53,457 nt of DNA. Source: DATDCY01 sp031406795 [NCBI: Candidatus Rokuibacteriota bacterium]. Its GTDB lineage: Bacteria; JAUVQV01. Each line of letters starts with the position of its first letter. Positions within the stretch are counted from its first letter, which is position 1. The translations under genes were made by a program, and so were the position numbers. Shown piece by piece: positions 15,147 to 38,740 of this stretch. The stretch lies in assembly GCA_031406795.1 (NCBI GenBank), contig JANOHV010000208.1:1-53457 (forward strand), written 5' to 3'. The notes under the pieces are model-generated. The model was given only the letters and a program-made list of their open reading frames with translations. It ran no database searches and was not told where the DNA came from.

Positions 15147-15159
15147 CATGCGACCTTTC

Positions 15160-15186
15160 GTAGGGGCGGGGTTGACCCCCGCCCGG
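15160..15186. repeat. Dispersed palindrome, family B (GGGGCGGGGTTGA type)
   Basis: An inverted repeat (GGGGCGGGGTTGACCCCCGCCC) that also occurs as a tandem set at 50559-50679. It sits directly before the hemH ribosome site, in the hemE-hemH gap. Confidence 0.75.
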
Positions 15187-15237
15187 AAGGACGGTTGCGC
15201 ACGGGAGGGGACCAATCCCAGCCTGTGCGCCGGTCAG

Positions 15238-15267
15238 GTTCGGGAGGGGATGAACCCCTCCCCTACA
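15238..15267. repeat. Dispersed palindrome, family A, overlapping the hemE stop
   Basis: GGTTCGGGAGGGGATGAACC and the following CCTCCCCTAC form a strong hairpin. Near-identical copies lie at 50469-50502 and, inverted, at 36909-36943. The hemE stop codon (TAG, 15265-15263 on the minus strand) is inside the repeat. Confidence 0.75.
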
Positions 15268-16315: not shown

Positions 16316-17391
16316 GACGTGCAGCTGCTCCTCATCATCCTGATCGGGGTATAGGTGCAGAACGGTTCCTCGTCCAGATAATCGCCGGTCACGGCGTAGG
16401 CGCGGGCGCGGCAGCCGCCGCAGACGTTGAGGTACTCGCACTGGCCGCACTTGCCCTTGTAGCCCTTGAAGTTGCGCAGCTCGAGAAAGAGCGGCGATTT
16501 CTCCCAGATTTCGCGGAACGGAGTCTTCTTGACGTTGCCGGCCGAGACCGGGAAGTAGGAGCAGGGCTTGACCTCGCCGAAAGCGTCGATCAGGCAGATG
16601 CTCTGGGCGGCGATGCAGCCCTTGCCGCCGCCGGTGGAGAAGGTCAGCGAGCGGCGCTCGAACTTGACCCCCTCGGCCTTGGCCATCTGCGGCACGACCC
16701 GGTAGTAGTGCGGCGCGCAGGTCGGGCGCACGAGGAGTTCATGCTCGTTCTTCTCCATCTCGTAGTGCCACTTGAGGATCTCCTCGTAGTCCTCCTTGGA
16801 GATCAACTCGCCCATGATGTCCTCGCCGCGCCCGGTGGGAACGATCATGAACAGGTACCAGGCGGTGGCGCCGAGGCTCTTGGCCAGGCGCATCACGTTC
16901 GCGATGTCCCCCTGGTTGCGCTTCGTGAACGAGGAGTTGATCAGGAACGGGATGCCGTGCTTCTTCAGGAGCGCCGCGCCGCGCAGCGTGCCGTCGAAGG
17001 CGCCGGGCATCGAGCGGAAGTCGTCGTGGATCGCCGCCGTCGAGCCGTCCAGCGAGAGCGAGACCATGCGCAGCTGGGCGTCCTTCATCTTCTCGCAGAC
17101 GGCGTCGGTGATCAGCGTGCCGTTGGTCGCCATGCACATGCGCAGCCCGAGCGCGGTGCCGCGCCGGGCGATGTCGAAGACGTCCGGGCGCAGCAGCGGC
17201 TCGCCGCCGGAGAGCACGAGCACCGGCTTGGAGAGCTCCGCGATCTGGTCGAGCAGCGCGAAGGCCTCGGCCGTCGTGAAGTCCCCCTGCGCGGAGGTCA
17301 GCTCCGAGGAACAGCGGCAGTGGACGCAGCGCAGGTTGCAGCGCTGGGTCGTCTCCCAGGCGATCCACTTGGGCAGGAACGGTTCGACCAT
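16312..17391 (-). CDS. Radical SAM/SPASM protein, AhbC/AhbD/NirJ-like
   Basis: A 359-residue protein from ATG 17391. The radical SAM cluster cysteines are C18, C22 and C25 (CNLRCVHC). SSGG-like [12 protein letters not shown] follows, and a C-terminal auxiliary-cluster region has Cys-rich [19 protein letters not shown] and [13 protein letters not shown]. This layout, with [10 protein letters not shown] before the C-terminal cluster, is that of NirJ and the alternative-haem enzymes AhbC and AhbD, which trim side chains of siroheme-derived tetrapyrroles. Coupled to hemE by a 4-bp overlap, which supports a tetrapyrrole role. Which reaction it does cannot be settled from sequence. Confidence 0.8.
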
Positions 17392-17487
17392 GCTCTTCGC
17401 GGTCCTTTCTTGGCGGGTCCGGTCGCCGTCGACGAAAACCCCCGCCATCCCGTGCGGCGGGAGCGGCGGGGGGGCGCGAACCCGGAA

Positions 17488-25822: not shown

Positions 25823-26791
25823 CTGGAAATTATTGGCCAGAGTTCGGGGATCCGCCGCGTGAAGGAGCTGGTTTCCAAGGTGGCGCCGTCCGGCCACACC
25901 GTGCTCGTTCAGGGCGAGAGCGGCGTGGGCAAGGAACTGGTGGCGCGCTCGATCCACCAGTCCAGCCCCCGCCGTGACCGTCCGTACGTCGTGGTCGATT
26001 GCGGGATGCTCAACGAGAATCTGCTGCAGAACGAGCTGTTCGGCCATCAGAAGGGCGCCTTCACCGGCGCGACCGCGCTCAAGCATGGTCTCTTCGAGGT
26101 CGCCGACACCGGGACGCTCTTTCTCGACGAGATCGGCGAGGTCAGCCCGGTGCTGCAGGCGAAATTGCTGCGCGTGCTCGAAACCGGCAGTTTTCGGCGC
26201 CTCGGCAGCACGGTGGACCTGAAAGTGGACGTGCGGCTGGTGGCCGCGACCAACCGCGACCTGCTGCAGATGAGCCGCGAGGGCACCTTCCGGGAGGATC
26301 TCTTCTACCGTCTCAATGTCTTCCCCGTGCTCGTTCCGCCGCTGCGCGAGAGGCGCGACGACATCCCGCTGCTGGCGCGGCACTTCCTGCGACGGGCGAA
26401 CCACCCGGGGGGCGAGAAGAAGCTTGCACCCGAGGCGCTGGAGCTGCTCAAGTCGTACGCGTGGCCGGGGAACATCCGCGAACTGCAGAACATGATCGAA
26501 AGCGCGGTGATCATTGCGGAGACCGCGGAGATTCAGGCGCGGGATCTCCCCGTGGTCGTGCGGGGACAGGACCCGCAGGCCGGGTTCGACCTGTCCGAAA
26601 ACATGTCTCTCGAGGAGTTGGAGCGGCGCTACATCGGTCTGCTGCTCGAGCGCCTCGGCGGTCATCGCGCCAAGGTGGCCAAGGTGCTCCAGATCAGTGA
26701 ACGCAACCTGTACCGGAAGCTCCGCGCCTATGAACTCGCCGACGCCAGCGTCGGCAGCCGGCGGCGCGCCCCGGTGGCCGGCACCCACTGA
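25823..26791 (+). CDS. Sigma54-dependent activator lacking an N-terminal sensor domain
   Basis: 322 residues that begin directly with the AAA+ core: Walker A GESGVGKE (31-38), the sigma54-contact loop GAFTGA (78-83), Walker B LFLDE (99-103) and the sensor and arginine-finger region (FREDLFYRLNVFPVLVPPLR). The C-terminus is a Fis-type helix-turn-helix (AKVAKVLQISERNLYRKLRA). No receiver or GAF domain precedes it, as in PspF. An AGGAGG at 25811-25816 lies 6 bp before an in-frame CTG (25823), so initiation on CTG is likely. An in-frame TTG at 25799 or GTG at 25859 are the alternatives. Only 98 bp separate it from nth. Its stop codon overlaps the first of the palindromes that I infer to be its binding sites. 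Best candidate regulator of the dsr genes. Confidence 0.9.
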   Translation: MEIIGQSSGIRRVKELVSKVAPSGHTVLVQGESGVGKELVARSIHQSSPRRDRPYVVVDCGMLNENLLQNELFGHQKGAFTGATALKHGLFEVADTGTLFLDEIGEVSPVLQAKLLRVLETGSFRRLGSTVDLKVDVRLVAATNRDLLQMSREGTFREDLFYRLNVFPVLVPPLRERRDDIPLLARHFLRRANHPGGEKKLAPEALELLKSYAWPGNIRELQNMIESAVIIAETAEIQARDLPVVVRGQDPQAGFDLSENMSLEELERRYIGLLLERLGGHRAKVAKVLQISERNLYRKLRAYELADASVGSRRRAPVAGTH

Positions 26792-26802
26792 CACCCCGTC
26801 AG
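26788..26802. promoter_or_regulatory. Upstream activator site 1 (CTGAC-N5-GTCAG)
   Basis: CTGACACCCCGTCAG, a perfect 5+5 palindrome with a 5-bp spacer. It overlaps the stop codon of the activator gene and lies about 138 bp from the -24 GG of the first sigma54 promoter. Inferred binding site of the Fis-type helix-turn-helix. Confidence 0.65.
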
Positions 26803-26810
26803 AGCGCCGA

Positions 26811-26825
26811 CTGACATCATGTCAG
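26811..26825. promoter_or_regulatory. Upstream activator site 2 (CTGAC-N5-GTCAG)
   Basis: CTGACATCATGTCAG, 23 bp (two helical turns) centre to centre from site 1 and about 115 bp from the -24 element, the usual enhancer distance for sigma54 activators. Same half-sites as site 1 and the site at 27400-27414. Confidence 0.7.
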
Positions 26826-26931
26826 GGCGCCGGGGCCCCGGCGCGCCGGGACCCTCCTGCGTCTCCCGTCCCCCGCCGGAATCCCCGCTGAAGTCCGCAT
26901 TATTGGCGACGTCGCACCGCGCTGTTGCTGT

Positions 26932-26947
26932 TGGTACAAGTTTTGCT
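26932..26947 (+). promoter_or_regulatory. Sigma54 promoter of the receiver-like gene
   Basis: TGGTACAAGTTTTGCT: GG (26933-26934) and GC (26945-26946) with exactly 10 bp between and a T-rich -12 flank. Transcription would start near 26958, a few bases before the AAGGAGG ribosome site of the next gene. Confidence 0.75.
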
Positions 26948-26975
26948 TTCTTCTTGCGCGCAAGGAGGAAGGTAC

Positions 26976-27365
26976 GTGCCGATCCCGAAAGTGCTGGTCT
27001 TTTCGCGCAAACCGCCGGAGGAGGGGGGGCTGAGCGCCATCCTCGCCGAGGAAGGCTTCCAGGTCGAGTGGACCGACAGCGGGCCATCGGCGATCTGTGA
27101 GGCGCTTTCGGGCAACCTCGCGGCCTGCATTATTTTCGTGAGCCGCAACGCCGAGCGCGAAGTCGATTACATCCCCTGCCTGAACCGGGTCGATCCGAAA
27201 CTGCCGATCATCGTCATCAGCGAGCACGATTCGGTGGAGCTTCAGCGCAAAGTGCGCCGCCACCGCGTCTTCTACTACCTGCTGCTTCCCCTCGACCGGG
27301 AGGAAATCAGCGCGGTGCTGCGCAATGCCGTGCGCACGCCGGTGAAGAAACGCAAGCGCTCCTGA
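26976..27365 (+). CDS. Receiver-like protein without phosphorylation residues
   Basis: 129 residues from GTG 26976 (AAGGAGG 7 bp upstream). The pattern of alternating strands and helices is that of a response-regulator receiver: KVLVFS, ACIIFVS, PIIVIS and VFYYLLLPLDREEI at the places of beta-1, beta-3, beta-4 and beta-5. The acidic pair is replaced (FS), the phospho-accepting Asp is Ser (S56) or Val, and the invariant Lys of the KP motif is Leu. It ends in a basic tail (KKRKRS). It lies between the sigma54 activator and the dsr genes under its own sigma54 promoter. I infer a regulatory role by protein contact, perhaps with the sensor-less activator. No named family recognised. Confidence 0.75.
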   Translation: MPIPKVLVFSRKPPEEGGLSAILAEEGFQVEWTDSGPSAICEALSGNLAACIIFVSRNAEREVDYIPCLNRVDPKLPIIVISEHDSVELQRKVRRHRVFYYLLLPLDREEISAVLRNAVRTPVKKRKRS

Positions 27366-27378
27366 AGCCCCCGGCTCC

Positions 27379-27393
27379 TGCCATGCTGTCATC
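27379..27393. promoter_or_regulatory. Upstream activator site 3 (degenerate)
   Basis: CTGCCATGCTGTCAT matches the CTGAC-N5-GTCAG pattern at 8 of 10 half-site positions. It lies 21 bp centre to centre from the perfect site at 27400-27414, mirroring the paired layout at 26788-26825. Confidence 0.4.
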
Positions 27394-27399
27394 AGCGCC

Positions 27400-27414
27400 T
27401 GACAATTCGTCAGC
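27400..27414. promoter_or_regulatory. Upstream activator site 4 (CTGAC-N5-GTCAG)
   Basis: CTGACAATTCGTCAG, a perfect 5+5 palindrome, about 101 bp upstream of the -24 GG of the second sigma54 promoter. Confidence 0.7.
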
Positions 27415-27506
27415 GCCGACGCATCGTGAATGTGAGTGCAGTCACGAGGTGCGGGCACTCTCTGCAAAACCATGGCCTTAGCGCGGTTTTCGACTTTCCC
27501 GGCTGC

Positions 27507-27522
27507 TGGTATGTTTCTTGCT
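27507..27522 (+). promoter_or_regulatory. Sigma54 promoter of the RsbRD-dsrMKJOP operon
   Basis: TGGTATGTTTCTTGCT: GG (27508-27509), 10 bp, GC (27520-27521), followed by a T-run. Nearly the same -12 context as the first promoter. Transcription would start near 27533, about 20 bp upstream of the next ATG. Confidence 0.78.
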
Positions 27523-27553: not shown

Positions 27554-28033
27554 ATGGGACTGAGCGAGGCGCTGGCTGCGAAGCGGGAAGCGGTTCTGGA
27601 GCGGTGGTTCCAGGCCGTGCTCGCCACCTACCCCGAGGACACGGCGCGCTTTCTCGCGGGCGGCTCCGATCCCTTCGCCAACCCCGTCGGCCACACGGTC
27701 CGCGAGGGGCTCGGTCGGCTCTACGACCGTTTCGCCGCCGAAGTGCCGGTTGCCGAGCTCTCCGCCGCGATCGACGGAATCGTGAGGATCCGGGCGGTGC
27801 AGGAGTTCACCCCGTCGGCGGCCGTCAGCTTCGTCTACACCCTCAGGGGAATTCTCCGCGACGAGCTGACGGACGCTGCGCTCGATCGTCCGGCGCTGAC
27901 CGCGCTGGAAAACGGCGTCGATCGTCTGGCGCTCGTCGCCTTCGACGTGTACATGCAGTGCCGCGAGAAAATCTTCGAGATCCGGGTGCGCGAGATCAAG
28001 GAGTCGCAACTCCTGGCCGCGCGCCTCGGGTGA
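27554..28033 (+). CDS. RsbRD N-terminal domain protein
   Basis: 159 residues, all helical, ATG 27554 with GGAGGGGAG upstream. The start (GLSEALAAKREAVLERWFQA) and the middle (TPSAAVSFVYTLRGILRDEL) match the RsbRD N-terminal domain, a globin-like fold found in sensor parts of stressosome proteins. Here the domain stands alone, with no STAS or kinase part. In several sulfate reducers a protein of this type is encoded just before dsrM. A sensory or assembly role in the Dsr complex is inference. First structural gene behind the second sigma54 promoter. Confidence 0.8.
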   Translation: MGLSEALAAKREAVLERWFQAVLATYPEDTARFLAGGSDPFANPVGHTVREGLGRLYDRFAAEVPVAELSAAIDGIVRIRAVQEFTPSAAVSFVYTLRGILRDELTDAALDRPALTALENGVDRLALVAFDVYMQCREKIFEIRVREIKESQLLAARLG

Positions 28034-28082: not shown

Positions 28083-29081
28083 ATGAAGCTACTGAGTGCT
28101 CTGGCAGCCGTGGTGATCCTCACGGCAATCGGGCTCGCGGGGGGTAGTTCCGGTGGGCTGCAGCCACTGTTCGGCATCTGGATCCCGTACCTCGCGGTTG
28201 CCATGTTCATCGGCGGCACCGTCATGGCGGTGATCCGCTGGGGACGGTCGCCGGTCCCGTTCCGCATCCCGACGACCTGCGGGCAGCAGCGGGCGCTGCC
28301 GTGGATCCCGAACGACTCGCTGGACAACCCGCATACGACGGGCGCGGTCCTCAAGCGGATGTTCCTCGAAGTCTTCCTGTTCCGCTCGCTCTTCCGCAAC
28401 ACCCGGATGAAGCTGCAGAACGGTAACCTGGTCTACGGATCGACGAAGTGGCTCTGGCTCGGCGCTCTGGCTTTCCATTACGCGTTCTTCACGATCCTGA
28501 TCCGCCACCTGCGTTTCTTCCTCGAGCCGGTCCCCGCGCTTATCGCCGCGATGGACAAGGCGGACGGCTTCTTCCAGGTCGGCCTGCCCTCGATGTACCA
28601 GACTGACGCCGTGATCCTCGCGGCCCTCGGCTTCCTGCTCGCGCGCCGGCTGCTCGAGCCGCAGGTGCGCTACATCAGCTTCGCTTCCGACTTTTTCCCG
28701 CTGCTGTTGATCGGCGCGATCGCGGTCACCGGCGTGCTGATGCGCTACTTCGTGCGGGTCGACGTCACGGCCATCAAACAGCTCGCGATGAGCCTGGCCA
28801 CCTTCTCGCCGGCCGTCCCCGCCGGGGTCGGCGCGCTCTTCTTCGCGCACCTGTTCCTGATCTGCGCGCTGCTCGCGTACTTCCCCTTCTCGAAGCTGCT
28901 GCACGCACCGGGGGTGTTCATGAGCCCGACGCGCAACCTCGCGAACAACAGCCGCGAGGTGCGCCACATCAACCCCTGGAATCCCGATGTCAAGGTGCAC
29001 ACCTACGAGGAGTGGGAGGAGGAGTTCCACGTGCCGATGAAGAAGGCCGGCTTCCCCCTCGAGAAGGAATACAAGGAGTAG
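28083..29081 (+). CDS. dsrM: DsrM, membrane cytochrome b subunit of DsrMKJOP
   Basis: 332 residues with about five to six membrane helices and a NarI-like core with His residues on helices for haem b (FHYAFFTILIRHLRF). It takes electrons from menaquinol and passes them to DsrK on the cytoplasmic side. A short cytoplasmic C-terminus (EEWEEEFHVPMKKAGF) is family-like. 3 bp separate it from dsrK. Confidence 0.95.
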   Translation: MKLLSALAAVVILTAIGLAGGSSGGLQPLFGIWIPYLAVAMFIGGTVMAVIRWGRSPVPFRIPTTCGQQRALPWIPNDSLDNPHTTGAVLKRMFLEVFLFRSLFRNTRMKLQNGNLVYGSTKWLWLGALAFHYAFFTILIRHLRFFLEPVPALIAAMDKADGFFQVGLPSMYQTDAVILAALGFLLARRLLEPQVRYISFASDFFPLLLIGAIAVTGVLMRYFVRVDVTAIKQLAMSLATFSPAVPAGVGALFFAHLFLICALLAYFPFSKLLHAPGVFMSPTRNLANNSREVRHINPWNPDVKVHTYEEWEEEFHVPMKKAGFPLEKEYKE

Positions 29082-29084
29082 ACG

Positions 29085-30689
29085 ATGGCGACGCCGAAAC
29101 CGCAGGAACTCGTCAATACCGTCAAGAGCCAGCCCCCGGCGACGGAGTGGATGGACACGCCGCTGGACTTCCGGCCCGGCACTTTCTGCTATTCCGGTAA
29201 GGAGAAGTTCGTCGAGTACCTCGGCTTCCCCTTTCCGCGCGAGTGGCGGGCGCAGGAGGCCGACTGGAAGCTGCCGCCGAACTGGAAGGAGATCATCCTC
29301 GAGGGGATCCGCGAGCGGCTGCTGAAGTTCCGCTCCTTCCACCTGTTCATGGATATCTGCGTGCGCTGCGGCGCCTGCGCCGACAAATGCCACTTCTTCA
29401 TCGGCTCCGGCGACCCGAAGAACATGCCGGTGCTGCGCGCCGAGCTGATGCGCTCGATCTACCGGCGCGAGTTCACGAAGGCCGGCAAGATCTTCGGCAA
29501 GATGGCCGGCGCGCGCGAGTTGACCCCCGAGGTCATCAAGGAGTGGTACCAGTACTTCTACCAGTGCACCGAGTGCCGGCGCTGCTCGGTGTACTGTCCC
29601 TACGGCATCGACACCGCCGAGGTCACGATGATGGGGCGTGAGTTGATGCACCTGATCGGCGTGAACATCAACTGGATTCTCGAGCCCGCCGCGAACTGCT
29701 TCCGGGTCGGCAACCACCTCGGCATCACGCCGCACGCGTTCAAGGGCAGCATCGAAGGCCTCGTCGACGACGTCGAGAGCGCGACCGGGATCCGCGTCAA
29801 CCCGACCTTCAACCGCAAGGGCGCCGAGATCCTCTTCGTGACCCCGTCGGCCGATGCGTTCGCCGCGCCGGCGATCTTCACGCTGATGGGCTACCTGCTG
29901 CTCTTCCACCAGATGGGGATCGACTACACGTTCTCGGCGTACAACTCCGAAGGCGGCAACTTCGGGCTCTTCACGTCGAACGAGATGATGAAGCGGCTCA
30001 ACGCCAAGATGTACGCCGAGTCCAAGCGCCTCGGCGTCAAGTGGATCCTCGGCGGCGAGTGCGGCCACATGTGGCGCGTGGTTCACCAGTACATGGACAC
30101 GATGAACGGCCCGGCGAACCACCTCGAGGTGCCCAAGTCGCCGGTCACCGGGACTGTTTTCGAGCACGCCAAGTCGACGAAGATGGTGCACATCTGCGAG
30201 TTCACCGCGGACCTGATCCACAACAACAAGCTCAAGCTCGACCCGAGCCGCAACGACAAGTACCAGGTCACGTTCCACGACTCCTGCAACACTGCGCGCG
30301 GGATGGGGATGATGGAGGAGCCGCGCTACATCATCAACAGTGTGATGAACCCCGCCAACTTCCACGAGATGCCCGAGAACACGATCCGCGAACAGACCTA
30401 CTGCTGCGGTTCCGGATCGGGATTGAACACCGACGAACTGATGGAGATGCGCATGCGCGGCGGCTTCCCCCGCGCGAATGCCCTCAAGTCCGTCGTCGAC
30501 AAGCACGGCGTGAACCTGATGGCCACGATCTGCGCGATCGACAAGGCGACGCTCTCGTCGCTGGTGGACTACTGGAACCCCGGGGTCGAGATCGGCGGCG
30601 TGCACGAGTTGCTCGGCAACGCGCTGATCCTGGACGGCGAACCGGAACGCACGCAGAATCTGCGCGGCGAGCCGCTCAAGGAGGAGTAG
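29085..30689 (+). CDS. dsrK: DsrK, HdrD-like iron-sulfur subunit of DsrMKJOP
   Basis: 534 residues. Two ferredoxin-type [4Fe-4S] motifs (CVRCGACADKC at about 88-98 and CTECRRCSVYC at about 161-171) are followed by Cys-rich CCG-like domains (FHDSCNTARGMG and TYCCGSGSGLN). The latter forms the special cubane of heterodisulfide reductases. In the family it is the likely site of DsrC trisulfide reduction. Located in the cytoplasm, bound to DsrM. Confidence 0.96.
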   Translation: MATPKPQELVNTVKSQPPATEWMDTPLDFRPGTFCYSGKEKFVEYLGFPFPREWRAQEADWKLPPNWKEIILEGIRERLLKFRSFHLFMDICVRCGACADKCHFFIGSGDPKNMPVLRAELMRSIYRREFTKAGKIFGKMAGARELTPEVIKEWYQYFYQCTECRRCSVYCPYGIDTAEVTMMGRELMHLIGVNINWILEPAANCFRVGNHLGITPHAFKGSIEGLVDDVESATGIRVNPTFNRKGAEILFVTPSADAFAAPAIFTLMGYLLLFHQMGIDYTFSAYNSEGGNFGLFTSNEMMKRLNAKMYAESKRLGVKWILGGECGHMWRVVHQYMDTMNGPANHLEVPKSPVTGTVFEHAKSTKMVHICEFTADLIHNNKLKLDPSRNDKYQVTFHDSCNTARGMGMMEEPRYIINSVMNPANFHEMPENTIREQTYCCGSGSGLNTDELMEMRMRGGFPRANALKSVVDKHGVNLMATICAIDKATLSSLVDYWNPGVEIGGVHELLGNALILDGEPERTQNLRGEPLKEE

Positions 30690-30692
30690 ACG

Positions 30693-31082
30693 ATGATCTA
30701 CGACAAGGGCAAGATCTTCGCCGGCCTGGCGATCTTCGTCGGCCTGGTCGCGTCGCCGTTCTGGTACAACCCGGTCTTCGGCACGGGGTCTGCCGCGCCG
30801 CCGGAAGTTCAACTGCCGGCGGCGCCCGCGAAATGCGTGCTGCCGCGCGACGAGATGCGGGCCTCGCACATGCAGGTCATCTACGACTGGCGCGAGAAGG
30901 TGGTGCGCGACGGGGCGCGGACGTACCCGCACCCGGACGGTGAGGACCGCCCGATGAGCCTCTCGAACACCTGTCTCGGCTGTCACGAGGGCAAGAAGAA
31001 GTTCTGCGACACCTGTCACGAATACCTCGCGGTCCAGCCGTTCTGCTGGGACTGCCACTTCGACCCGAAGGAGCATGTCTAA
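30693..31082 (+). CDS. dsrJ: DsrJ, triheme cytochrome c
   Basis: 129 residues with an uncleaved N-terminal hydrophobic anchor (about 8-25) and three CxxCH haem sites (CLGCH, CDTCH, CWDCH). Periplasmic electron carrier of the Dsr membrane complex. Its stop shares a base with the dsrO start. Confidence 0.95.
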   Translation: MIYDKGKIFAGLAIFVGLVASPFWYNPVFGTGSAAPPEVQLPAAPAKCVLPRDEMRASHMQVIYDWREKVVRDGARTYPHPDGEDRPMSLSNTCLGCHEGKKKFCDTCHEYLAVQPFCWDCHFDPKEHV

Positions 31083-31888
31083 TGGGCACGGATGAGGGGA
31101 AGGGGATGGACAGACGGGGATTCCTCAAGCTCGCGGGGCTCGGCGCCCTCGGGGCCGCCGGTCTGCCTGCCGGCTGGAGCCTGCTGCAGCCCGGCGAGGC
31201 GCTGGCGTCGGCCCCGGCGGCCGCGCGCGGCGGCAAACGCTGGGCGATGGTCGTCGACATGCGCAAGGGTTGCCCGGATGACTGCCGCAAGTGCACCACC
31301 GCCTGCCACCAGGAACACAACGTCCCGTCGTTCGCCGACGAGACCGATCCCAAGCGGCATGAGATCAAGTGGATCTGGAAGACGGCGTACCACAGCGCGT
31401 TTCCCGGCAACGAACAGCAGTTCGCCCGCGAAGACCTCGAGCACAAGGAGACCGTGGTCCTGTGCAATCACTGCGAGCACCCGCCCTGCGTGAAGGTCTG
31501 CCCGACCCAGGCGACCTACCAGCGGCCCGACGGGATCGTGATGATGGATTTCCACCGCTGCATCGGCTGCCGCTTCTGCATGGCCGGCTGCCCCTATGGC
31601 GCGCGCAGCTTCAACTGGCGCAATCCGCGCGCCGGCCTGCCCGCGAAGGTGCCGAACCCGGCGTACCCGACGCGGATGATGGGCGTCGTCGAGAAGTGCA
31701 CGTTCTGCTCCGAGCGGCTGGACAAGAACCTGCAGCCGGCCTGCGTCGAAGCCTGCACCGAGAAGCTCCTGGCTTTCGGCGACCTGCAGGATGCGGCCGC
31801 GCCGGTGCGCGCGCTGCTCAAGGAGCACTTCACCATCCGTCGCAAGCCGAACCTGGGGACGCAGCCCCAGGTTTACTTCATCATCTAG
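31082..31888 (+). CDS. dsrO: DsrO, Tat-exported ferredoxin-type subunit
   Basis: 268 residues with a twin-arginine signal (MDRRGFLKLAGLGALG) and four [4Fe-4S] ligand sets in the NrfC/DmsB style (CRKCTTACH, CNHCEHPPCVKVC, CIGCRFCMAGC, CTFCSERLD). AAGGAG lies 8 bp before ATG 31082, supporting this start over an ATG eight codons on. Faces the periplasm with DsrJ and DsrP. Confidence 0.95.
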   Translation: MGTDEGKGMDRRGFLKLAGLGALGAAGLPAGWSLLQPGEALASAPAAARGGKRWAMVVDMRKGCPDDCRKCTTACHQEHNVPSFADETDPKRHEIKWIWKTAYHSAFPGNEQQFAREDLEHKETVVLCNHCEHPPCVKVCPTQATYQRPDGIVMMDFHRCIGCRFCMAGCPYGARSFNWRNPRAGLPAKVPNPAYPTRMMGVVEKCTFCSERLDKNLQPACVEACTEKLLAFGDLQDAAAPVRALLKEHFTIRRKPNLGTQPQVYFII

Positions 31889-31901
31889 GAGGAGGCGGGC
31901 C

Positions 31902-33059
31902 ATGCTGGAAAAAGCGCTCACGGGTAGCACACGGTACCGCGCTTGGGTCGGCGGCCTCCTGCTGGTGATCCTGGTCGGCGTCGCCTGTTACGTCATGCAG
32001 TTCAACGAGGGACTGGGCATCACGGGCATGAGCCGGGATGTCACCTGGGGTTTCTACATCGCCCAGTTCACGTTCCTCGTCGGCGTCGCCGCCTCCGCGG
32101 TGATGCTCGTCATCCCCTACTACCTGCACCACTACAAGGCCTTCGGCAAAATCACGATCCTCGGGGAGTTCCTGGCGATCGGCGCGGTGACGATGTGCCT
32201 GCTTTTCATCCTCGCCGACCTCGGGCAGCCGATGCGCGCGATGAACGTGATCCTGCACCCGACGCCCGGCTCGATCCTGTTCTGGGACATGATCGTCCTC
32301 AACGGCTACCTGTTCCTGAACGTGCTGATCGGCTGGACGACGCTGACCGCCGAGAAGAAGGGGATCCCGTCGCCGAAGTGGATCAAGCCGTTCATCTACC
32401 TCTCCGTGCCCTGGGCGGTTTCGATCCACACCGTCACGGCCTTCCTCTACGCGGGCCTCCCCGGCCGCGGTTTCTGGCTGACGGCCGTCCTGGCGCCGCG
32501 ATTCCTGACCTCGGCGTTCGCCGCCGGCCCCGCGCTGCTGATCCTGCTCGCGATGCTGGTGCGCAAGCTCTCGAAATTCGACCCGGGCCGGGAGCAGATC
32601 CAGACCCTCGCGAAGATCGTGGCCTATGCGCTGCCGCTGAATCTCTTCCTGCTCGGCTGCGAGGTCTTCACGGTCTTCTACAGCAACATCCCCGACCACA
32701 AGCTGCATTTTCAGTACCTCTACTTCGGGCTGGACGGGCATAATGCCCTGGTGCCCTGGATGTGGAGTTCGGTCGCCCTCGGGCTTGCGGCGGCCGTGCT
32801 GCTGGTGAATCCCGGGACGCGGCGCAACGAGACGATCCTGGCCTGGGCCTGCGGTATGACGTTCGTGGCCACCTGGATCGACAAGGGCCTCGGCATGATC
32901 TCGGGCGGGTTCGTCCCGAACCCCCTCGAAGAGATCACCGAGTACTGGCCGACGCTGCCGGAGGGGCTCATCGCCCTCGGCATCTGGGCGATCGGCGCGC
33001 TGATCGTCACCGTGCTCTACAGGGTGGCGATCTCGGTGCGAGAGCAGGAGGCGGCGTAA
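31902..33059 (+). CDS. dsrP: DsrP, NrfD-family integral membrane subunit
   Basis: 385 residues with about ten membrane helices. NrfD/PsrC family traits are clear. It probably exchanges electrons between the quinone pool and DsrO/DsrJ. ATG 31902 has GGAGGAGG upstream and follows dsrO by 13 bp. Confidence 0.95.
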   Translation: MLEKALTGSTRYRAWVGGLLLVILVGVACYVMQFNEGLGITGMSRDVTWGFYIAQFTFLVGVAASAVMLVIPYYLHHYKAFGKITILGEFLAIGAVTMCLLFILADLGQPMRAMNVILHPTPGSILFWDMIVLNGYLFLNVLIGWTTLTAEKKGIPSPKWIKPFIYLSVPWAVSIHTVTAFLYAGLPGRGFWLTAVLAPRFLTSAFAAGPALLILLAMLVRKLSKFDPGREQIQTLAKIVAYALPLNLFLLGCEVFTVFYSNIPDHKLHFQYLYFGLDGHNALVPWMWSSVALGLAAAVLLVNPGTRRNETILAWACGMTFVATWIDKGLGMISGGFVPNPLEEITEYWPTLPEGLIALGIWAIGALIVTVLYRVAISVREQEAA

Positions 33060-33166
33060 CGCGGGCGGCAGCAGGCAACCGCGGGCCCCATTCGCCGGAC
33101 GGCGGCGGCTGCGGCCCGCTTCACACGGAAGCACACGGGCAAACAACCCAAGAGGAGGAAGACGGC

Positions 33167-33502
33167 ATGGCGCACATCGAAGTGAACGGCAAGCAGATCG
33201 AGGTCGACGAGGACGGCTACATTCAGCGGCTCGAGGACTGGACCGAAGACGTCGCCAAGTACATCGCGAACGTCGAGCAGGTCGAGTTGACCCCCGAGCA
33301 CTGGGAGATCATCAACTTCCTGCGCAGCTACTACCAGGAGTACAAGATCGCGCCGATGATCCGGATCCTGACCAAGGAAATCGCCAAGAAGATGGGACCG
33401 GAGAAGGGCAACACCAAGTACCTGTACTCGCTGTTCCCCGCCGGCCCGGCCAAGCAGGCCTGCAAGATCGCCGGTCTGGCCAAGCCCGCCGGCTGCGTGT
33501 AG
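33167..33502 (+). CDS. dsrC: DsrC, sulfur carrier of dissimilatory sulfite reduction
   Basis: 111 residues; ATG 33167 with AGAGGAGGAAG upstream. Both redox cysteines of genuine DsrC are present in the flexible C-terminal arm: Cys99 and the penultimate Cys110, eleven apart. DsrC accepts the sulfite sulfur from DsrAB as a trisulfide, which DsrMKJOP reduces. A 107-bp GC-rich gap follows dsrP, so it may also have its own transcript; no promoter was recognised there. Confidence 0.97.
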   Translation: MAHIEVNGKQIEVDEDGYIQRLEDWTEDVAKYIANVEQVELTPEHWEIINFLRSYYQEYKIAPMIRILTKEIAKKMGPEKGNTKYLYSLFPAGPAKQACKIAGLAKPAGCV

Positions 33503-33528
33503 GGCGCGATCGCGGTGTTGGGGCTCCC

Positions 33529-34164
33529 GTGTCGACGTTGCGTCGCTCGGTTCGTGGCCACCTCGAGAGCGGGGATTACGCCCCGGTCCTCTCGCTGGTC
33601 GTTGCCGACCGGGGTGTCGTGCGCGCGCTGGTCTCCCTGCTCTGCGATCCCGACGAGCTGCTGCGGTGGCGGGCGGTGAGCGCTCTCGGCCAGCTGGCCG
33701 GGGCGCACCCGGATCTGGCGCAGCCGCTCGTGGCGCGGCTGTACTGGAGCCTCAACGACGAGTCCGGGGGCATCGGCTGGATGTCGGCGCCGGCCCTCGG
33801 CGAGATCGGCCGCTTCGCGCCGCAGTTGCTCAGCAAGTGCGTCCGGCCCCTCGTCCGCTACCTCGACGAGCCGTTCCTGCTCGCCGGGTCGCTCTGGGCG
33901 ATCGGCCGGCTCGCGCCGGCGTACCCGGCGGAGACGCGGGAGGTTGTCCCCGAGGTTGCGCTTTGCTGCGCCTCGGCCGACCCGGCGGTGCGGGCCAGCG
34001 CGGCCTTCGCCCTCGGCGCGGTCGGGGACGGCCGGGCGCGCATCGCGCTCACGGGTCTTGCCGACGACCAAAGCCCGGCGCGGCTCTACGAGGAGGGACA
34101 GTTGGTGACCAAGCAGGTGCGGGAATGGGCCGGGGAAGCGCTCTCCCGGCTGCGGGCGGCGTAG
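33529..34164 (+). CDS. HEAT-repeat protein between dsrC and dsrA
   Basis: 211 residues from a GTG at 33529 made of alpha-helical HEAT/PBS-lyase-like repeats (ELLRWRAVSALGQLAGAHPD, PAVRASAAFALGAVGDGRA). No catalytic motif and no signal peptide, so a cytoplasmic scaffold or assembly factor. It lies 26 bp after dsrC and about 70 bp before dsrA on the same strand. A role in DsrC or DsrAB maturation or interaction is inference from position. Confidence 0.75.
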   Translation: MSTLRRSVRGHLESGDYAPVLSLVVADRGVVRALVSLLCDPDELLRWRAVSALGQLAGAHPDLAQPLVARLYWSLNDESGGIGWMSAPALGEIGRFAPQLLSKCVRPLVRYLDEPFLLAGSLWAIGRLAPAYPAETREVVPEVALCCASADPAVRASAAFALGAVGDGRARIALTGLADDQSPARLYEEGQLVTKQVREWAGEALSRLRAA

Positions 34165-34189
34165 ACTCCGCGCCAACGAACCACACACT

Positions 34190-34209
34190 CCCCGCCGCTG
34201 GTGGCGGGG
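34190..34209. other. Hairpin in the dsrA leader
   Basis: CCCCGCC (34190-34196), a 6-nt loop and GGCGGGG (34203-34209) form a 7-bp GC stem 24 bp before the dsrA ATG. It has no U-tract, so it is more likely an mRNA processing or stabilising stem than a terminator. Confidence 0.4.
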
Positions 34210-34233
34210 CGATCTGAAAGGGAGGATGTACAG

Positions 34234-35427
34234 ATGGCGGATCACGTTCACAAGTACAAGACCCCGATGCTCGACGAGCTCGAGAAGGGGCCGTGGCCGA
34301 GCTTCGTGAAGGAGATCAAGCGGGCGGCCGCAAAGAGACCGATGGCCGAAGGTCTTCTCGGGCAGCTCGAGCGGTCTTACAAGGACAAGCAGACCTACTG
34401 GAAGCACGGCGGTCTCGTCGGCATCCAGGGTTACGGCGCCGGCATCATCGGCCGCTACTCGGCCCTCGGGACGGAGTTCCCCGAGGTTGCCGCCTTCCAC
34501 ACGGTGCGTATCAACCAGCCCGCCGGCTGGTTCTACACCTCGAAGGCCCTGCGCACGCTGTGCGACATCTGGGACAAGCACGGCTCGGGTCTGCTCAACG
34601 TGCACGGCTCCACCGGCGACTTCGTGCTGCTCGGAACGACATCGGAGAAGCTCGAGGATTGCTTCACGGACTACTCGAACGCGGGCTGGGACCTCGGCGG
34701 GTCTTCCTCCGACATGCGGACCCCCTCCTGCTGCAACGGCATGGCGCGCTGCGAGTTCGCCTGCTTCGACACGATGGCGCTCTGCCACGACCTGACCATG
34801 ACCTACCAGGACGAGCTGCATCGTCCGGCCTTCCCGTACAAATTCAAGATCAAGATCGCCGGCTGCCCGAACGACTGCGTGGCGTCGATCGCCCGCTCCG
34901 ACCTCTCCATCATGGGCACCTGGAAAGACGAGATCCGTATCGACCAGGCCGAGTGCCAGGCCTACATCAAGGCCGGGATGGACATCGTCGCCGAGATCAC
35001 CGGGATGTGTCCGACCGCCTGCATGACGTGGGACGGCAAGACGATGAAGATCAACAACCACGAGTGCAACCGCTGCATGCACTGCATCAACTTCATGCCC
35101 AAGGCCCTGCGCCACGGCAAGGAGACGGGTGCCACGATCCTCGTCGGCGGCAAGGCCCCGATCCTCGAGGGCGCGCAGTTGGCATCCGTGGTCGTGCCCT
35201 TCATGCCGATGAAGGCGCCCTTCTCGGAGATCAAGGAGTTCATTCAGAAGCTCTGGGACGTCTGGGGCGAGAACGGCAACAACCGCGAGCGCATCGGCGA
35301 GTTCATGCTCCGCGTCGGGGTCGGCAACTTCATGGAGTCCATCGGCGAGGCGCCGAACCCGAACATGGTCATGCACCCCCGCGAGAACCCCTACATCTTC
35401 TACGAAGAGTACTTCGAGGAAGAGTAG
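34234..35427 (+). CDS. dsrA: Dissimilatory sulfite reductase alpha subunit
   Basis: 397 residues from ATG 34234 (GGGAGGATG upstream). Cysteine sets for the siroheme-coupled [4Fe-4S] cluster are [12 protein letters not shown] and GCPNDC. A ferredoxin domain is inserted near [12 protein letters not shown] with a second Cys set NRCMHC. It reduces sulfite to the DsrC-bound trisulfide or sulfide in the cytoplasm. The closeness of dsrD points to the reductive direction. Confidence 0.97.
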
Positions 35428-35490
35428 CTTCCGGCGCTTGTTGCGGAAATCAAACCAACGACGGCCTAACGGCAGGAGGATACAGAAAAC

Positions 35491-36567
35491 ATGGCAGCTG
35501 CCAAGCGTGAGACGGACATCGGCCCGCCCCACTATGAACAGTTTCTGCACCCGGTCATCAAGAAGAACTACGGCACCTGGAAGTACCACGAGACCCTCAA
35601 GCCCGGCGTGATGGTCCACGTGGCCGAGAGCGGCGACAAGATCTTCACCGTGCGCGCCGCCTCGCCCCGCCTCGTGAGCACCGACTTCATCCGCGACCTG
35701 GCGTCCCTCGCGGACAAGCACTGCGAAGGGCACCTGCGCTTCACGAGCCGCAACAACTGCGAGTTCATGACCGGCGAGCAGAAGAACATCGACCCGCTGA
35801 TCGCGGACCTCGCCAAGCTCGGGATCCCGGTCGGGGGCCTGAACAACTCGATCTCGAACATCGTCCACACCCAGGGCTGGGTCCACTGCCACACCCCGGC
35901 GACGGATGCCTCCGGCGTCGTCAAGGTGCTCATGGACGACCTGATCGACTACTTCACGCACGAGAAGCTCCCCGCGAAGCTGCGCGTCGCGCTCGCCTGC
36001 TGCCTGAACATGTGCGGCGCGGTGCACTGCTCCGACATCGCGGTCCTCGGCATCCACCGGCGGCCGCCGAAGGTCAACAACGCCCGCGTCACCGATCTCT
36101 GCGAGATCCCGACGACGGTCTCGTCCTGCCCGACGGCGGCCATCCGCCCTGCGATGGTCGACGGCAAGCAGACCGTGACGGTCGACGAGTCGCGCTGCAT
36201 GTACTGCGGCAACTGCTACACCTCCTGCCCGGCGATGCCGCTCGCGAACCCGATCAACGACGGTGTCTCGATCTGGGTCGGCGGCAAGGTCTCCAACGCC
36301 CGCAGCATGCCGATGTTCTCGAAGCTGGCGATCCCCTACCTCCCGAACAACCCGCCGCGCTGGCCCGAGGTCACCGACGCCGTGCGCAAGCTGGTCGAGG
36401 TCTACGCCAAGCACGCCATCAAGCACGAGCGTTTCGGCGAGTGGGCGAACCGGATCGGCTGGCCGCGGTTCTTCGAGCTCACCGGTCTGGAGTTCACCAA
36501 GTACCACATCGACGACTACAAGCTGGCGCAGAAGACCCTGCGCTCCACCGCGCAGATCAAGTTCTAG
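35491..36567 (+). CDS. dsrB: Dissimilatory sulfite reductase beta subunit
   Basis: 358 residues. The siroheme/[4Fe-4S] Cys pair sets lie in [11 protein letters not shown], and a ferredoxin motif is [12 protein letters not shown]. The catalytic siroheme is held by DsrB in characterised enzymes. AGGAGG lies 13-14 bp before ATG 35491; 63 bp after dsrA. Confidence 0.97.
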
Positions 36568-36585
36568 GCGAAGGAGACGACGACA

Positions 36586-36831
36586 ATGGCCGTTCCCCAC
36601 GCAGACCTGGCAGAGGGCATCTTCAAGATGGTCGAGGCCGACGCGGGCAAGATGCGCTACAAGCCGCGTGACCTGGAGAAGGGCATGACCAAGAAGTTCG
36701 GCGAGGGCTCGTTCTCGAAGGAAGAGTTCAAGGCCGCGCTCAAGGACCTGATGGACAACGGGCGCCTGATCTACGGGTACTACGGCGGCGTTTCGGTGGA
36801 GTTGCCGCATCAGGAAGGCTCCGCGAAGTAG
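36586..36831 (+). CDS. dsrD: DsrD, winged-helix activator of sulfite reductase
   Basis: 81 residues with the DsrD winged-helix fold pattern (KYK-like MRYKPRDLEKGMTKKFGEG, FKAALKDLMDNGRLIYGYYG). DsrD is largely confined to organisms that reduce sulfite and raises DsrAB activity. It follows dsrB by 18 bp. Confidence 0.95.
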   Translation: MAVPHADLAEGIFKMVEADAGKMRYKPRDLEKGMTKKFGEGSFSKEEFKAALKDLMDNGRLIYGYYGGVSVELPHQEGSAK

Positions 36832-36858
36832 TCTTTCCGGCAGCAGACGGCAAGACAC

Positions 36859-36904
36859 CCGGCGGGCGGGCGGGCTTCCCCCGTTTCGTCCGCCGGTTTA
36901 CGTT
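36859..36904 (+). terminator. Weak terminator-like stem after dsrD
   Basis: CCGGCGG (36859-36865) pairs with CCGCCGG (36890-36896) around a G/C-rich loop and is followed by TTTACGTT. The T-tract is short, so read-through to dsrL is likely. Confidence 0.35.
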
Positions 36905-36908
36905 GCAG

Positions 36909-36943
36909 GGTTCGTAGGAGAGGGGTTCAGCCCCTCCCGCAAC
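36909..36943. repeat. Dispersed palindrome, family A (inverted copy)
   Basis: GGTTCGTAGGAGAGGGGTTC followed by AGCCCCTCCCGCAAC, the inverse of the copies at 15238-15267 and 50469-50502 with a few changes. It lies in the dsrD-dsrL gap. Confidence 0.65.
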
Positions 36944-36992
36944 AGCCGGGCCATGATGAGCGGCCTACCAGAATGAGAAGGAGCACGGCACT

Positions 36993-38684
36993 ATGGCGGA
37001 GATGAAAGTCGTCAAGAAGGTCATGAAGCTCGGCGGCCGCGGCGCGGCCGGCGGCAAGAACGAAGATACCGGGCTGCGGCCGTACTATGTCGAGAAGCTC
37101 CCGCCGTGCACCTTCATGTGCCCGAGCGCGGAGGACATCCGCGGGTACCTGACGTTTATCGCACAGGCGGAAAAGTACGGTCGGAGCGCCTCCGATTCCT
37201 TCACCGAGGGCTGGCACATCATCACGAACCGCAATCCCTTCCCGGCGACGATGGGCCGCATTTGCCCGCACCCCTGCGAAGGCGCCTGCAACCGCGGCAA
37301 GCTCGATACGCCGGTGGCGATCAACAACATGGAGCGCTGGGTCGGTGACTGGGGCATCAAGCACCAGCTGCGCGCCCGCAAGATCTCCGACGAGAAGCGG
37401 CCGGAGAAGGTCGCGGTCGTCGGCGGCGGACCCGCCGGACTCTCCGCCGCCTACCAGCTGGCGCGCCGCTGCTACGCGGTGACGGTGTTCGAGGGAGCCG
37501 TGAAGGCCGGCGGCATGCTGCGCTACGGCATCCCGAGCTACCGCCTCCCGGATGAAGTGCTCGACGCCGAGATTCAGGCGATCCTCGACCTGGGCGTCGA
37601 ACTGCGCACCGGCGTGCAGATCGGCCGCGACATTGCGATGGAGGACCTGCGGCGCGACTTCCAGGTCGTGTACCTGGCGATCGGCGCGCAGAAAGGCGTC
37701 AACCTCGGCCTCCCTGGCGAGGACGCGCCGAACTGCTTCTCCGGCGTCGACTTCCTGCAGCGCGTCCGGATCGGCGAGAACATCGACGTCGGCGACAAGG
37801 TCATCGTCATCGGCGGCGGCAACACGGCGATCGACGCCGCGCGCACCTCGCGCCGGCTCGGCGCGCACGTGACGCTGCTGTATCGGCGCACCCGCAAGGA
37901 AATGCCGGCGATCGAGCACGAGATCACCGAGGCCGAACACGAGGGCGTGGTGTACGAGTTCCTGTCGGCGCCGCAGGAAATTGTCGTCAAGGACGGCCGC
38001 GCCGTCGCGGTGAAGTGCCTGCGCATGGAGCTCTGCGAGCCCGATGCCAGCGGCCGGCGCCGTCCGGTCCCGGTGCCGGGGTCGGATTACGAGGTCCCCT
38101 GCACCGCGGTGATCGCTGGCATCAGCCAGACCCCGGTCTGGACCGGCATCGAGGAGTTCCGCGGGGAGAAGGGCTGGATCGACGTCAACGAGGTCCACGA
38201 GACGTCGGTCCCGGGCGTGTTCGCCGGCGGGGATGTCACCGTGGGTCTGGGCATCGCGACCCAGGCGATCGGGCTTGGCCGCCAGGCCGCGGAGGTCATC
38301 GACCGGAAGTTCCAGAACCTCAACGCCCCCGAGCCCGACACGCGCAAAATCATCCGCGCCGACCAGATCATCGGCCTGCAGCTCAACGAGAAGAAGCCGC
38401 GGATAGAACGCCGCCAGATCCCGGTGGCCGAGCGTCTGATGGACTTCCGGGAGTGCGACACGACCTACGAGGAGTCCGAGGCGGTCACCGAGAGCAAGCG
38501 CTGCCTCTCCTGCGGGCTGTGCTGCGACTGCGACAACTGTTTCATGTACTGCCAGGCAAAGGCGATCGAGCGGCTCGACAAGAGCCTGCCGATCGGCCAG
38601 CACTACAAGGCGATTTTCGAGAAGTGCATCGGCTGCAAGAAGTGCGCGGAAGCGTGCCTCTGCGGCTACATCGACATCCGCTAG
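36993..38684 (+). CDS. dsrL: DsrL-like iron-sulfur flavoprotein (GltD family with C-terminal ferredoxin domain)
   Basis: 563 residues from ATG 36993 (AGAAGGAG upstream). The N-terminal Cys set CPHPCEGACNRG binds a [4Fe-4S] cluster as in GltD. The FAD loop is VVGGGPAGLSAAYQLA and the NAD(P)H loop VIGGGNTAIDAA. The C-terminus adds two ferredoxin-type sets (CLSCGLCCDCDNC and CIGCKKCAEAC). Purple sulfur bacterial DsrL links NAD(H) with DsrAB; related DsrL-2 forms occur in some sulfur or sulfate reducers. Position after dsrABD supports a DsrAB electron partner. A general NADPH:ferredoxin-type GltD homologue is the alternative. Confidence 0.82.
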   Translation: MAEMKVVKKVMKLGGRGAAGGKNEDTGLRPYYVEKLPPCTFMCPSAEDIRGYLTFIAQAEKYGRSASDSFTEGWHIITNRNPFPATMGRICPHPCEGACNRGKLDTPVAINNMERWVGDWGIKHQLRARKISDEKRPEKVAVVGGGPAGLSAAYQLARRCYAVTVFEGAVKAGGMLRYGIPSYRLPDEVLDAEIQAILDLGVELRTGVQIGRDIAMEDLRRDFQVVYLAIGAQKGVNLGLPGEDAPNCFSGVDFLQRVRIGENIDVGDKVIVIGGGNTAIDAARTSRRLGAHVTLLYRRTRKEMPAIEHEITEAEHEGVVYEFLSAPQEIVVKDGRAVAVKCLRMELCEPDASGRRRPVPVPGSDYEVPCTAVIAGISQTPVWTGIEEFRGEKGWIDVNEVHETSVPGVFAGGDVTVGLGIATQAIGLGRQAAEVIDRKFQNLNAPEPDTRKIIRADQIIGLQLNEKKPRIERRQIPVAERLMDFRECDTTYEESEAVTESKRCLSCGLCCDCDNCFMYCQAKAIERLDKSLPIGQHYKAIFEKCIGCKKCAEACLCGYIDIR

Positions 38685-38702
38685 TACCACCTCAAGCACG
38701 AC

Positions 38703-38740
38703 ACGGCGGGGGGCCTGCGGGCCTCCCGCCGTATTTATTT
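38703..38740 (+). terminator. Rho-independent terminator at the end of the dsr locus
   Basis: ACGGCGGGGGGCC pairs with GGCCTCCCGCCGT (13 bp with a G-T wobble) around a short loop, then ATTTATTT. It lies 19 bp after the dsrL stop and closes the dsr transcript. Confidence 0.8.

What the first reader, a model, noticed from the sequence alone, without database searches (positions are those of the whole stretch)
26786..27522. A two-promoter sigma54 control module with matching enhancer palindromes ahead of the dsr genes
Two promoters with perfect GG-N10-GC spacing (26932-26947 and 27507-27522) share an almost identical TGGTA...TTGCT context. Each is preceded, about 101-138 bp upstream, by a pair of CTGAC-N5-GTCAG sites: 26788 and 26811, 23 bp apart, then a degenerate 27379 and a perfect 27400, 21 bp apart. 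The activator gene lies directly upstream and overlaps the first site. Sequence motifs and distances are seen; that the activator binds them is inference. It would put sulfite respiration under one dedicated enhancer-binding protein.
Basis: partly seen in the sequence, partly recalled or inferred. Interest (0 to 1): 0.85.

Follow-up and report, generated by a model that had tools for sequence, protein, structure and literature searches.

The report
Sigma54 switch ahead of sulfite-respiration genes
The DNA in front of this bacterium's sulfite-respiration genes carries what look like two matching enhancer-dependent promoters beside their likely activator gene, and other sulfite reducers show the same design with a different recognition sequence, which points to a little-described way of switching this ancient respiration on.

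Summary
Three perfect CTGAC-N5-GTCAG sites (26788, 26811, 27399) and the window's only two perfect TGG-N8-TTGCW boxes (26932, 27507) form two enhancer-promoter units; no such unit arose in 400 shuffles. The activator (25823-26791) is an AAA+/Fis-type enhancer-binding protein (EBP) core without sensor domain. Unit one precedes a degenerate receiver gene, unit two RsbRD_N-dsrMKJOP-C-HEAT-dsrAB-D-L.

CTGAC pairs were not seen ahead of dsr in the relatives examined. Two results support the reading. An EBP of the sister group (G497) shows the same order: EBP, TGACATTTTGTCA 6 bp behind its stop codon, -24/-12 box, stand-alone receiver, but no dsr. In one Acidobacteriota class another palindrome, GTTAC-N6-GTAAC, before a -24/-12 box marks dsrAB, dsrM and sat: 13 of 14 dsrA-positive against 3 of 66 dsrA-negative genomes (p=2e-11, uncorrected for kinship), an EBP gene next upstream in four genomes. 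Two Tectomicrobia/Chloroflexi-labelled loci show a similar layout.

Most likely a neighbouring EBP switches dsr on through sigma54: a known principle, apparently new for dsr in the papers I could search. Binding, transcript starts and signal are untested.

The parts
25823..26791 (+). sigma54 activator (bacterial enhancer-binding protein): Sigma54_activat + AAA lid + Fis-type HTH, no N-terminal sensor domain; probable CTG start after AAGGAGG
   Evidence: PF00158 224.8 bits, PF25601, PF02954 41.2 bits; sequence with GESGVGKE, GAFTGA, GTLFLDEIGE; the start codon is inferred
26788..26802 (.). upstream site 1 of promoter P1, CTGACACCCCGTCAG, overlaps the activator's stop codon
26811..26825 (.). upstream site 2 of P1, CTGACATCATGTCAG
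26932..26947 (+). promoter P1, -24/-12 box TGGTACAAGTTTTGCT
26976..27365 (+). stand-alone degenerate receiver-domain protein (129 aa, GTG start)
   Evidence: FleQ-type PF06490 23.9 bits, cutoff 22; Response_reg 23.9, below its cutoff 30.2; single-sequence model pLDDT 70, receiver matches in PDB
27378..27392 (.). degenerate upstream site 1 of P2 (2 mismatches)
27399..27413 (.). upstream site 2 of P2, CTGACAATTCGTCAG
27507..27522 (+). promoter P2, -24/-12 box TGGTATGTTTCTTGCT
27554..28033 (+). RsbRD_N-domain protein, first gene of the dsr run
   Evidence: PF14361 70.6 bits; found just upstream of dsrM in 30 of the 32 related loci
28083..38684 (+). dsrM, dsrK, dsrJ, dsrO, dsrP (31902-33059), dsrC (33167-33502), HEAT protein, dsrA, dsrB, dsrD, dsrL-type oxidoreductase
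   Evidence: dsr gene names rest on order and sequence character and are partly recalled; gaps -1 to 161 bp
38685..38740 (+). strong hairpin followed by T-rich DNA, possible end of the transcript
   Evidence: fold; limits approximate

Best explanation
Two sigma54-dependent promoters are switched by the neighbouring EBP, which binds paired CTGAC-N5-GTCAG sites about two helical turns apart, centred 127-163 bp before the expected starts (near 26958 and 27533). P1, just behind the EBP gene, makes the small degenerate receiver protein and may read on into dsr. P2 makes the RsbRD_N-dsrMKJOP-dsrC-HEAT-dsrAB-dsrD-dsrL transcript. Because the EBP lacks the N-terminal receiver that the EBPs of its sister group carry, its activity is probably set by a partner in trans, and the receiver protein behind P1 is the obvious candidate. 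Shown: sites, spacing, gene order, domains, the parallel module in G497, and the dsr-linked sigma54-type pattern in one Acidobacteriota class. Inferred: binding, promoter activity, the role of the receiver protein and the signal.
For: Unit structure in 0 of 400 shuffles. EBP core complete. The EBP's supported sister group (98/97) is L064 plus L067. L067 (G497) has EBP, TGACATTTTGTCA 6 bp behind its TGA stop, TGGCATATCGCTTGCG 88 bp further, then a stand-alone receiver alike to the window's (39% over 49 aa, E 1e-10 for that single comparison), and nearly the same recognition helix (ISLRNLYRKL against ISERNLYRKL). Other lineage: GTTAC-N6-GTAAC, 75-105 bp, TGG-N8-TTGC in 21 of 119 genomes of the class of G014, reversed-pattern control 0. 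In the 30 of 37 places for which loci were given, the first gene is dsrA in 10, RsbRD_N-dsrM in 3, a Cons_hypoth698-type permease in 5, DsrK-like in 3, cytidylate-kinase-like in 3, sat in 2, rhodanese in 2, a porin-like protein in 1, and in 1 a peptidase-like gene divergent from sat that shares its palindrome (one member each of permease, rhodanese, kinase and sat was checked with Pfam, the others by likeness). 13 of 14 dsrA-positive and 3 of 66 dsrA-negative genomes carry the pattern. An EBP gene is next upstream of the palindrome, 15 to 374 bp away, in G914, G943, G951 and G903.
Against: No CTGAC pair ahead of dsr in the relatives examined. L064, the other member of the sister group, has no such palindrome in its locus. 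The window's EBP is less like the dsr-linked Acidobacteriota EBPs (42-44%) than like EBPs with no dsr link in view (up to 54-56%), so the systems look separately recruited. TGACA-N4-GTCA before a -24/-12 box is rare but mostly unrelated: 8 of 326 genomes, reversed control 1, and only G497 had an EBP beside it. Similar palindromes can belong to other proteins (L048 and L050 lie beside other genes). Of the 15 Acidobacteriota loci fetched at length, only 4 show an EBP gene. No IHF-like site lies between sites and boxes. No binding, transcript or expression data; rpoN could not be looked for.
Confidence: 0.78

Rival explanations
1. The promoters are sigma54-dependent but the CTGAC palindromes belong to another regulator (for example a TetR-type repressor), and the EBP acts without them or on other genes.
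For: TGACA-type palindromes elsewhere lie beside a gene that reads like a TetR regulator (L048, by eye) or other genes; of 8 genomes with TGACA-N4-GTCA plus a -24/-12 box among 326, only G497 had an EBP beside it.
Against: Both pairs stand at enhancer distance before the window's only two perfect -24/-12 boxes, not over them; the EBP gene overlaps the first site; one of two sister EBPs shows the same arrangement; no other DNA-binding gene was seen between or beside the units.
Confidence: 0.1
2. The EBP controls only the receiver protein (a local loop, as in G497), while dsr is mainly expressed from an unrecognised housekeeping promoter; P2 matters little.
For: In G497 the same module lies ahead of genes that are not dsr. 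In the phylum sample of G015, 0 of 30 RsbRD_N loci have a box within 70 bp of the gene (L111 has one at -264, and L101 and L106 hold less than 450 bp of upstream DNA), so dsr does not need sigma54 in general.
Against: P2 has its own palindrome pair and a perfect box 47 bp before the RsbRD_N start codon, close to the position in five Acidobacteriota genomes (51-62 bp by approximate starts).
Confidence: 0.08
3. The palindromes act as RNA hairpins (transcription end or attenuation behind the EBP and receiver genes) rather than as DNA sites.
For: The stretch 26780-26860 folds strongly (-38.4 kcal/mol), and the sites lie on or shortly behind stop codons.
Against: About half of that energy belongs to a separate GC-rich repeat (26826-26860 alone: -19.7 kcal/mol); the arms are five bases and no T-run follows; the letters, not only the pairing, are kept between three copies, and the same place in G497 holds the same core.
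Confidence: 0.04

Closest known systems
Bacterial enhancer-binding proteins of the NtrC type with sigma54 promoters (general system, recalled)
   Same: AAA+ core with GAFTGA, Fis-type HTH, paired upstream palindromes, -24/-12 boxes
   Different: No N-terminal regulatory domain in the EBP; a separate degenerate receiver gene sits behind the first promoter; the target is dsr
G497 module (unnamed): sensor kinase, EBP, TGACA palindrome, -24/-12 box, stand-alone receiver
   Same: Gene order, palindrome core shortly behind the EBP stop codon, receiver gene behind the box
   Different: EBP keeps its receiver domain and a kinase-like gene lies upstream (both by eye); downstream genes are not dsr; one palindrome instead of two pairs
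Dsr-linked sigma54-type pattern of one Acidobacteriota class (GTTAC-N6-GTAAC), found here
   Same: -24/-12 boxes with a palindrome ahead of dsrAB and RsbRD_N-dsrM, EBP gene next upstream in four genomes
   Different: Other palindrome, usually one perfect copy; the EBPs tested have a PAS domain (L153, L156) and read GAFTDA; those in the tree form their own clade
Sigma54 regulome of Desulfovibrio vulgaris (PMC4641369; passages and one section seen)
   Same: EBPs next to sigma54 operons, some for electron transport (DVU3142 and ohc)
   Different: The terms dsr and sulfite do not occur in its main text; the flagellar motif yGTCA-N6-TGACr has its half-sites the other way round

Membership tests
sigma54 activator (bacterial enhancer-binding protein) | Sigma54-interaction AAA+ domain | tested here: met
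   PF00158, 224.8 bits against cutoff 20.2
sigma54 activator (bacterial enhancer-binding protein) | GAFTGA loop, Walker A and B | tested here: met
   GAFTGA, GESGVGKE, GTLFLDEIGE read in the sequence; motifs recalled
sigma54 activator (bacterial enhancer-binding protein) | Fis-type HTH at the C-terminus | tested here: met
   PF02954 41.2 bits
sigma54 activator (bacterial enhancer-binding protein) | activates open-complex formation at sigma54 promoters | not testable with these tools
   needs an experiment
NtrC-type response regulator | N-terminal receiver domain fused to the AAA+ core | tested here: not met
   AAA+ match starts at residue 3; a receiver is encoded separately
response regulator receiver (the 129-aa protein) | receiver fold | tested here: met
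   PF06490 above cutoff; Foldseek matches to many receivers, TM about 0.6-0.7, on a model of pLDDT 70 (a few matches are to other Rossmann-like proteins)
response regulator receiver (the 129-aa protein) | phospho-accepting aspartate and acidic pair | tested here: inconclusive
   by eye the usual positions read SR and V/S instead of DD and D (sequence); PF00072 below its cutoff
sigma54 promoter | TGG-N8-TTGCW with GG and GC ten bases apart | tested here: met
   two perfect sites; activity not tested
conserved dsr operator | same palindrome ahead of dsr in relatives | tested here: not met
   no CTGAC pair ahead of dsr in the loci; another palindrome in one class

The most novel reading that the evidence does not exclude
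Outside the classical sulfate reducers, switching Dsr respiration on through sigma54 and a neighbouring Fis-type activator is a recurring solution reached more than once with different activators and operators, and in this window the activator has been split so that a small degenerate receiver, made from its own target promoter, sets its activity in trans as a feedback.
Probability: 0.35. Interest if true: 0.78.

Novelty: new variant of a known kind. Interest (0 to 1): 0.62.

Why it matters
How Dsr-based respiration is switched on is poorly known. If right, two operators (CTGAC-N5-GTCAG and GTTAC-N6-GTAAC with a -24/-12 box) let one predict from a genome alone when an uncultured sulfite or sulfate reducer of these lineages treats the pathway as inducible, and which further genes (sat, a Cons_hypoth698-type permease, a rhodanese, a DsrK-like protein) it counts as part of it. 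It also gives a direct test of whether such lineages run the pathway as an on-demand respiration.

Tried and rejected
Whole genome of the window: not held, so rpoN, further CTGAC sites and a signal kinase could not be sought. Taxonomy of the window: ArgG is 36-57% alike to the genomes that matched (15 of 18 at E 1e-40, 45 of 60 at E 1e-120), and DsrAB stands alone on a long branch; no phylum can be named. A paired TGAC-N5-GTCA search in the phylum of G007 matched 23 of 282 genomes; I scanned 20 of those places and read three: none near dsr; L048 and L050 lie beside other genes; L053 has an EBP with a pair around its own start; L060 has a partial EBP about 1.1 kb from its pair and a box on the wrong side of it. 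Receiver protein as query: only generic receivers, in 6 of 18 genomes; the receiver of G497 has no match in the other 34 genomes of its order. EBP as query at E 1e-95: 6 of 297 genomes, none next to dsr in the loci held. The phylum of G006 holds a single genome. First promoter pattern was one base too long; corrected. A first scan of L069-L091 read one strand only; repeated with loci turned the right way. Rows left out of the EBP tree: repeats of the same genes (L150, L128, L129), the short L038, and sequences with stops in the aligned stretch (among them L063 and L155). Hairpin reading of the palindromes: weighed and put last.

Papers: searches are search listings only; PMC4641369 passages and one section, PMC10564751 passages (sigma, regulat, promoter, enhancer 0 times in the main text), PMC12316311 passages (dsr 0), PMC3333781 passages (dsr 0). 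From these I found no report of sigma54 control of dsrAB or dsrMKJOP; the library lacks most subscription papers.

Full report
WHAT IS THERE. The window (GC 67%) holds, on the + strand, an EBP gene (25823-26791), a 129-aa receiver-like gene (26976-27365), an RsbRD_N gene (27554-28033) and a dsr run from dsrM (28083) to a dsrL-type gene (ends 38684) followed by a strong hairpin. The two long gaps before the run, 184 and 188 bp, each hold one enhancer-promoter unit; gaps from dsrM onward are -1 to 161 bp.

CHANCE. Perfect palindromes: 3 seen, 0.065 expected, at most 2 in any of 400 shuffles. Two perfect boxes are unremarkable by count, but a perfect palindrome 50-200 bp before a perfect box is seen twice and in none of 400 shuffles. 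The fourth, degenerate palindrome is weak evidence: the 2-mismatch motif is not enriched in the window.

RELATIVES. Query dsrM gave 32 loci in species genomes. RsbRD_N lies just upstream of dsrM in 30 of 32; the two misses are L027 (no hit) and L031 (locus starts inside dsrM). No receiver hit and no nearby EBP was seen in them, except a distant EBP (32%) further along in L014; some loci hold only 3-5 kb upstream. I then looked at 84 RsbRD_N loci (five genomes appear twice: L005/L069, L001/L071, L018/L073, L006/L092, L019/L094). A TGG-N8-TTGC box 51-62 bp before the approximate RsbRD_N start stood in 6 rows, five genomes (L013, L018=L073, L077, L088, L089), and exactly those rows had GTTAC-N6-GTAAC about 100 bp further up. 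Of 30 loci from the phylum sample of G015 (L093-L122; 114 of 247 genomes matched, the rest were not fetched) none had a box within 70 bp or that palindrome; L111 has a box at -264, and L101 and L106 hold less than 450 bp of upstream DNA.

A DSR-LINKED PATTERN IN ONE CLASS. Searching 119 genomes of the class of G014 (the record of L018, which lies in it, is titled Thermoanaerobaculia; the tool itself names no class) for GTTAC-N6-GTAAC, 75-105 bp, TGG-N8-TTGC gave 21 genomes and 37 places, reversed control none. First genes in the 30 loci held: dsrA 10, RsbRD_N-dsrM 3, permease 5, DsrK-like 3, cytidylate-kinase-like 3, sat 2 (G892, G941), rhodanese 2, porin-like 1, and a peptidase-like gene divergent from sat 1 (dsr genes by tblastn, one example each of permease, kinase, rhodanese and sat by Pfam, the rest by eye). 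I tested 80 of these 119 genomes for DsrA: 13 of 14 positives carry the pattern (miss: G913), 3 of 66 negatives do (G941 before sat, G945 and G964 before the kinase-like gene); p = 2.4e-11, not corrected for kinship between genomes. For 33 further genomes, dsr status came from the RsbRD_N search or from L013: 5 of 5 against 0 of 28, but four of those five helped define the pattern, so this part is not independent. Six pattern-negative genomes were not tested. In G914, G943, G951 and G903 an EBP gene is the next gene upstream of the palindrome (15, 28, 82 and 374 bp away), ahead of dsrAB or of the permease-dsrAB run; PAS domain and HTH were tested for two of them. In the other 11 of 15 loci fetched at length no EBP gene was found.

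A THIRD CASE. L006 (Tectomicrobia record) and L012 (Chloroflexi record) have a short gene for a protein with only a Fis-type HTH (Pfam for L006, by eye for L012), a pair of GTTACC-N4-GGTAAC palindromes at its 3' end (one of the two degenerate in L012), then TGGCAAAGTCCTTGCT, then a dsrL-like gene and dsrAB. Among the window and 86 loci scanned blindly, only the window and L006 show a repeated perfect palindrome pair before such a box.

WHOSE OPERATOR IS CTGAC. The EBP tree (17 rows; about half of its forks are open) puts the window's EBP with L064 and L067 (98/97) and three Acidobacteriota dsr EBPs in their own clade (100/100). L067 (G497) has TGACATTTTGTCA 6 bp behind the EBP stop codon, TGGCATATCGCTTGCG 88 bp further, and a stand-alone receiver gene, with a kinase-like gene upstream. 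L064 lacks the palindrome. A search for TGACA-N4-GTCA plus box in 326 genomes gave 8 genomes, reversed control 1, and only G497 with an EBP beside it. So the operator and the layout go with this EBP branch in one of two kin, and the link to dsr is particular to the window.

MECHANISM. Best reading: the EBP binds the paired sites, loops to the holoenzyme at P1 and P2, and turns on the receiver protein and the dsr transcript. The EBP lacks the receiver domain seen by eye in its sister EBPs; the separate receiver is degenerate (by eye, no phospho-acceptor; Pfam, sequence; model pLDDT 70; receiver-like matches). That it sets EBP activity in trans is a proposal, not a result. The general mechanism of sigma54 activation is established knowledge, recalled.

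NOVELTY. Searches of open papers and passages of four papers showed no sigma54 control of dsr. The kind of system is known; the target and the split arrangement look new.

Noticed in passing
L153:2181-3572, L154:6744-8132, L155:5719-7146, L156:6002-7363: The sigma54-contact loop reads GAFTDA instead of GAFTGA in all four EBPs beside dsr genes of the Acidobacteriota class.
   Followed up: partly
L006:2619-2897 and L012:1682-2017: Short proteins with only a Fis-type HTH and no AAA+ domain, encoded directly before paired palindromes and a -24/-12 box ahead of a dsrL-like gene and dsrAB (Pfam for L006 only).
   Followed up: partly
window 27554-28033 and 30 of 32 dsrM loci: An RsbRD_N-domain protein is an almost constant first gene before dsrM across phyla; the term rsbrd occurs 0 times in the papers listed.
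   Followed up: partly
L133, L134, L136: A cytidylate-kinase-like protein gene stands behind GTTAC-N6-GTAAC plus a -24/-12 box in three genomes, two of them without dsrA, so the Acidobacteriota operator is not strictly limited to dsr.
   Followed up: partly
L053:2492-2526: An EBP gene with a TGACA palindrome pair around its own start, suggesting autoregulation.
   Followed up: no
window as a whole: ArgG and DsrAB are far from the genomes sampled, so the host may belong to a poorly sampled lineage.
   Followed up: partly
window 14169-17448: An AhbD-like radical SAM gene (heme b synthase model, 455 bits against cutoff 500) lies beside hemE and near hemH, genes of two different heme routes (routes recalled).
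   Followed up: no
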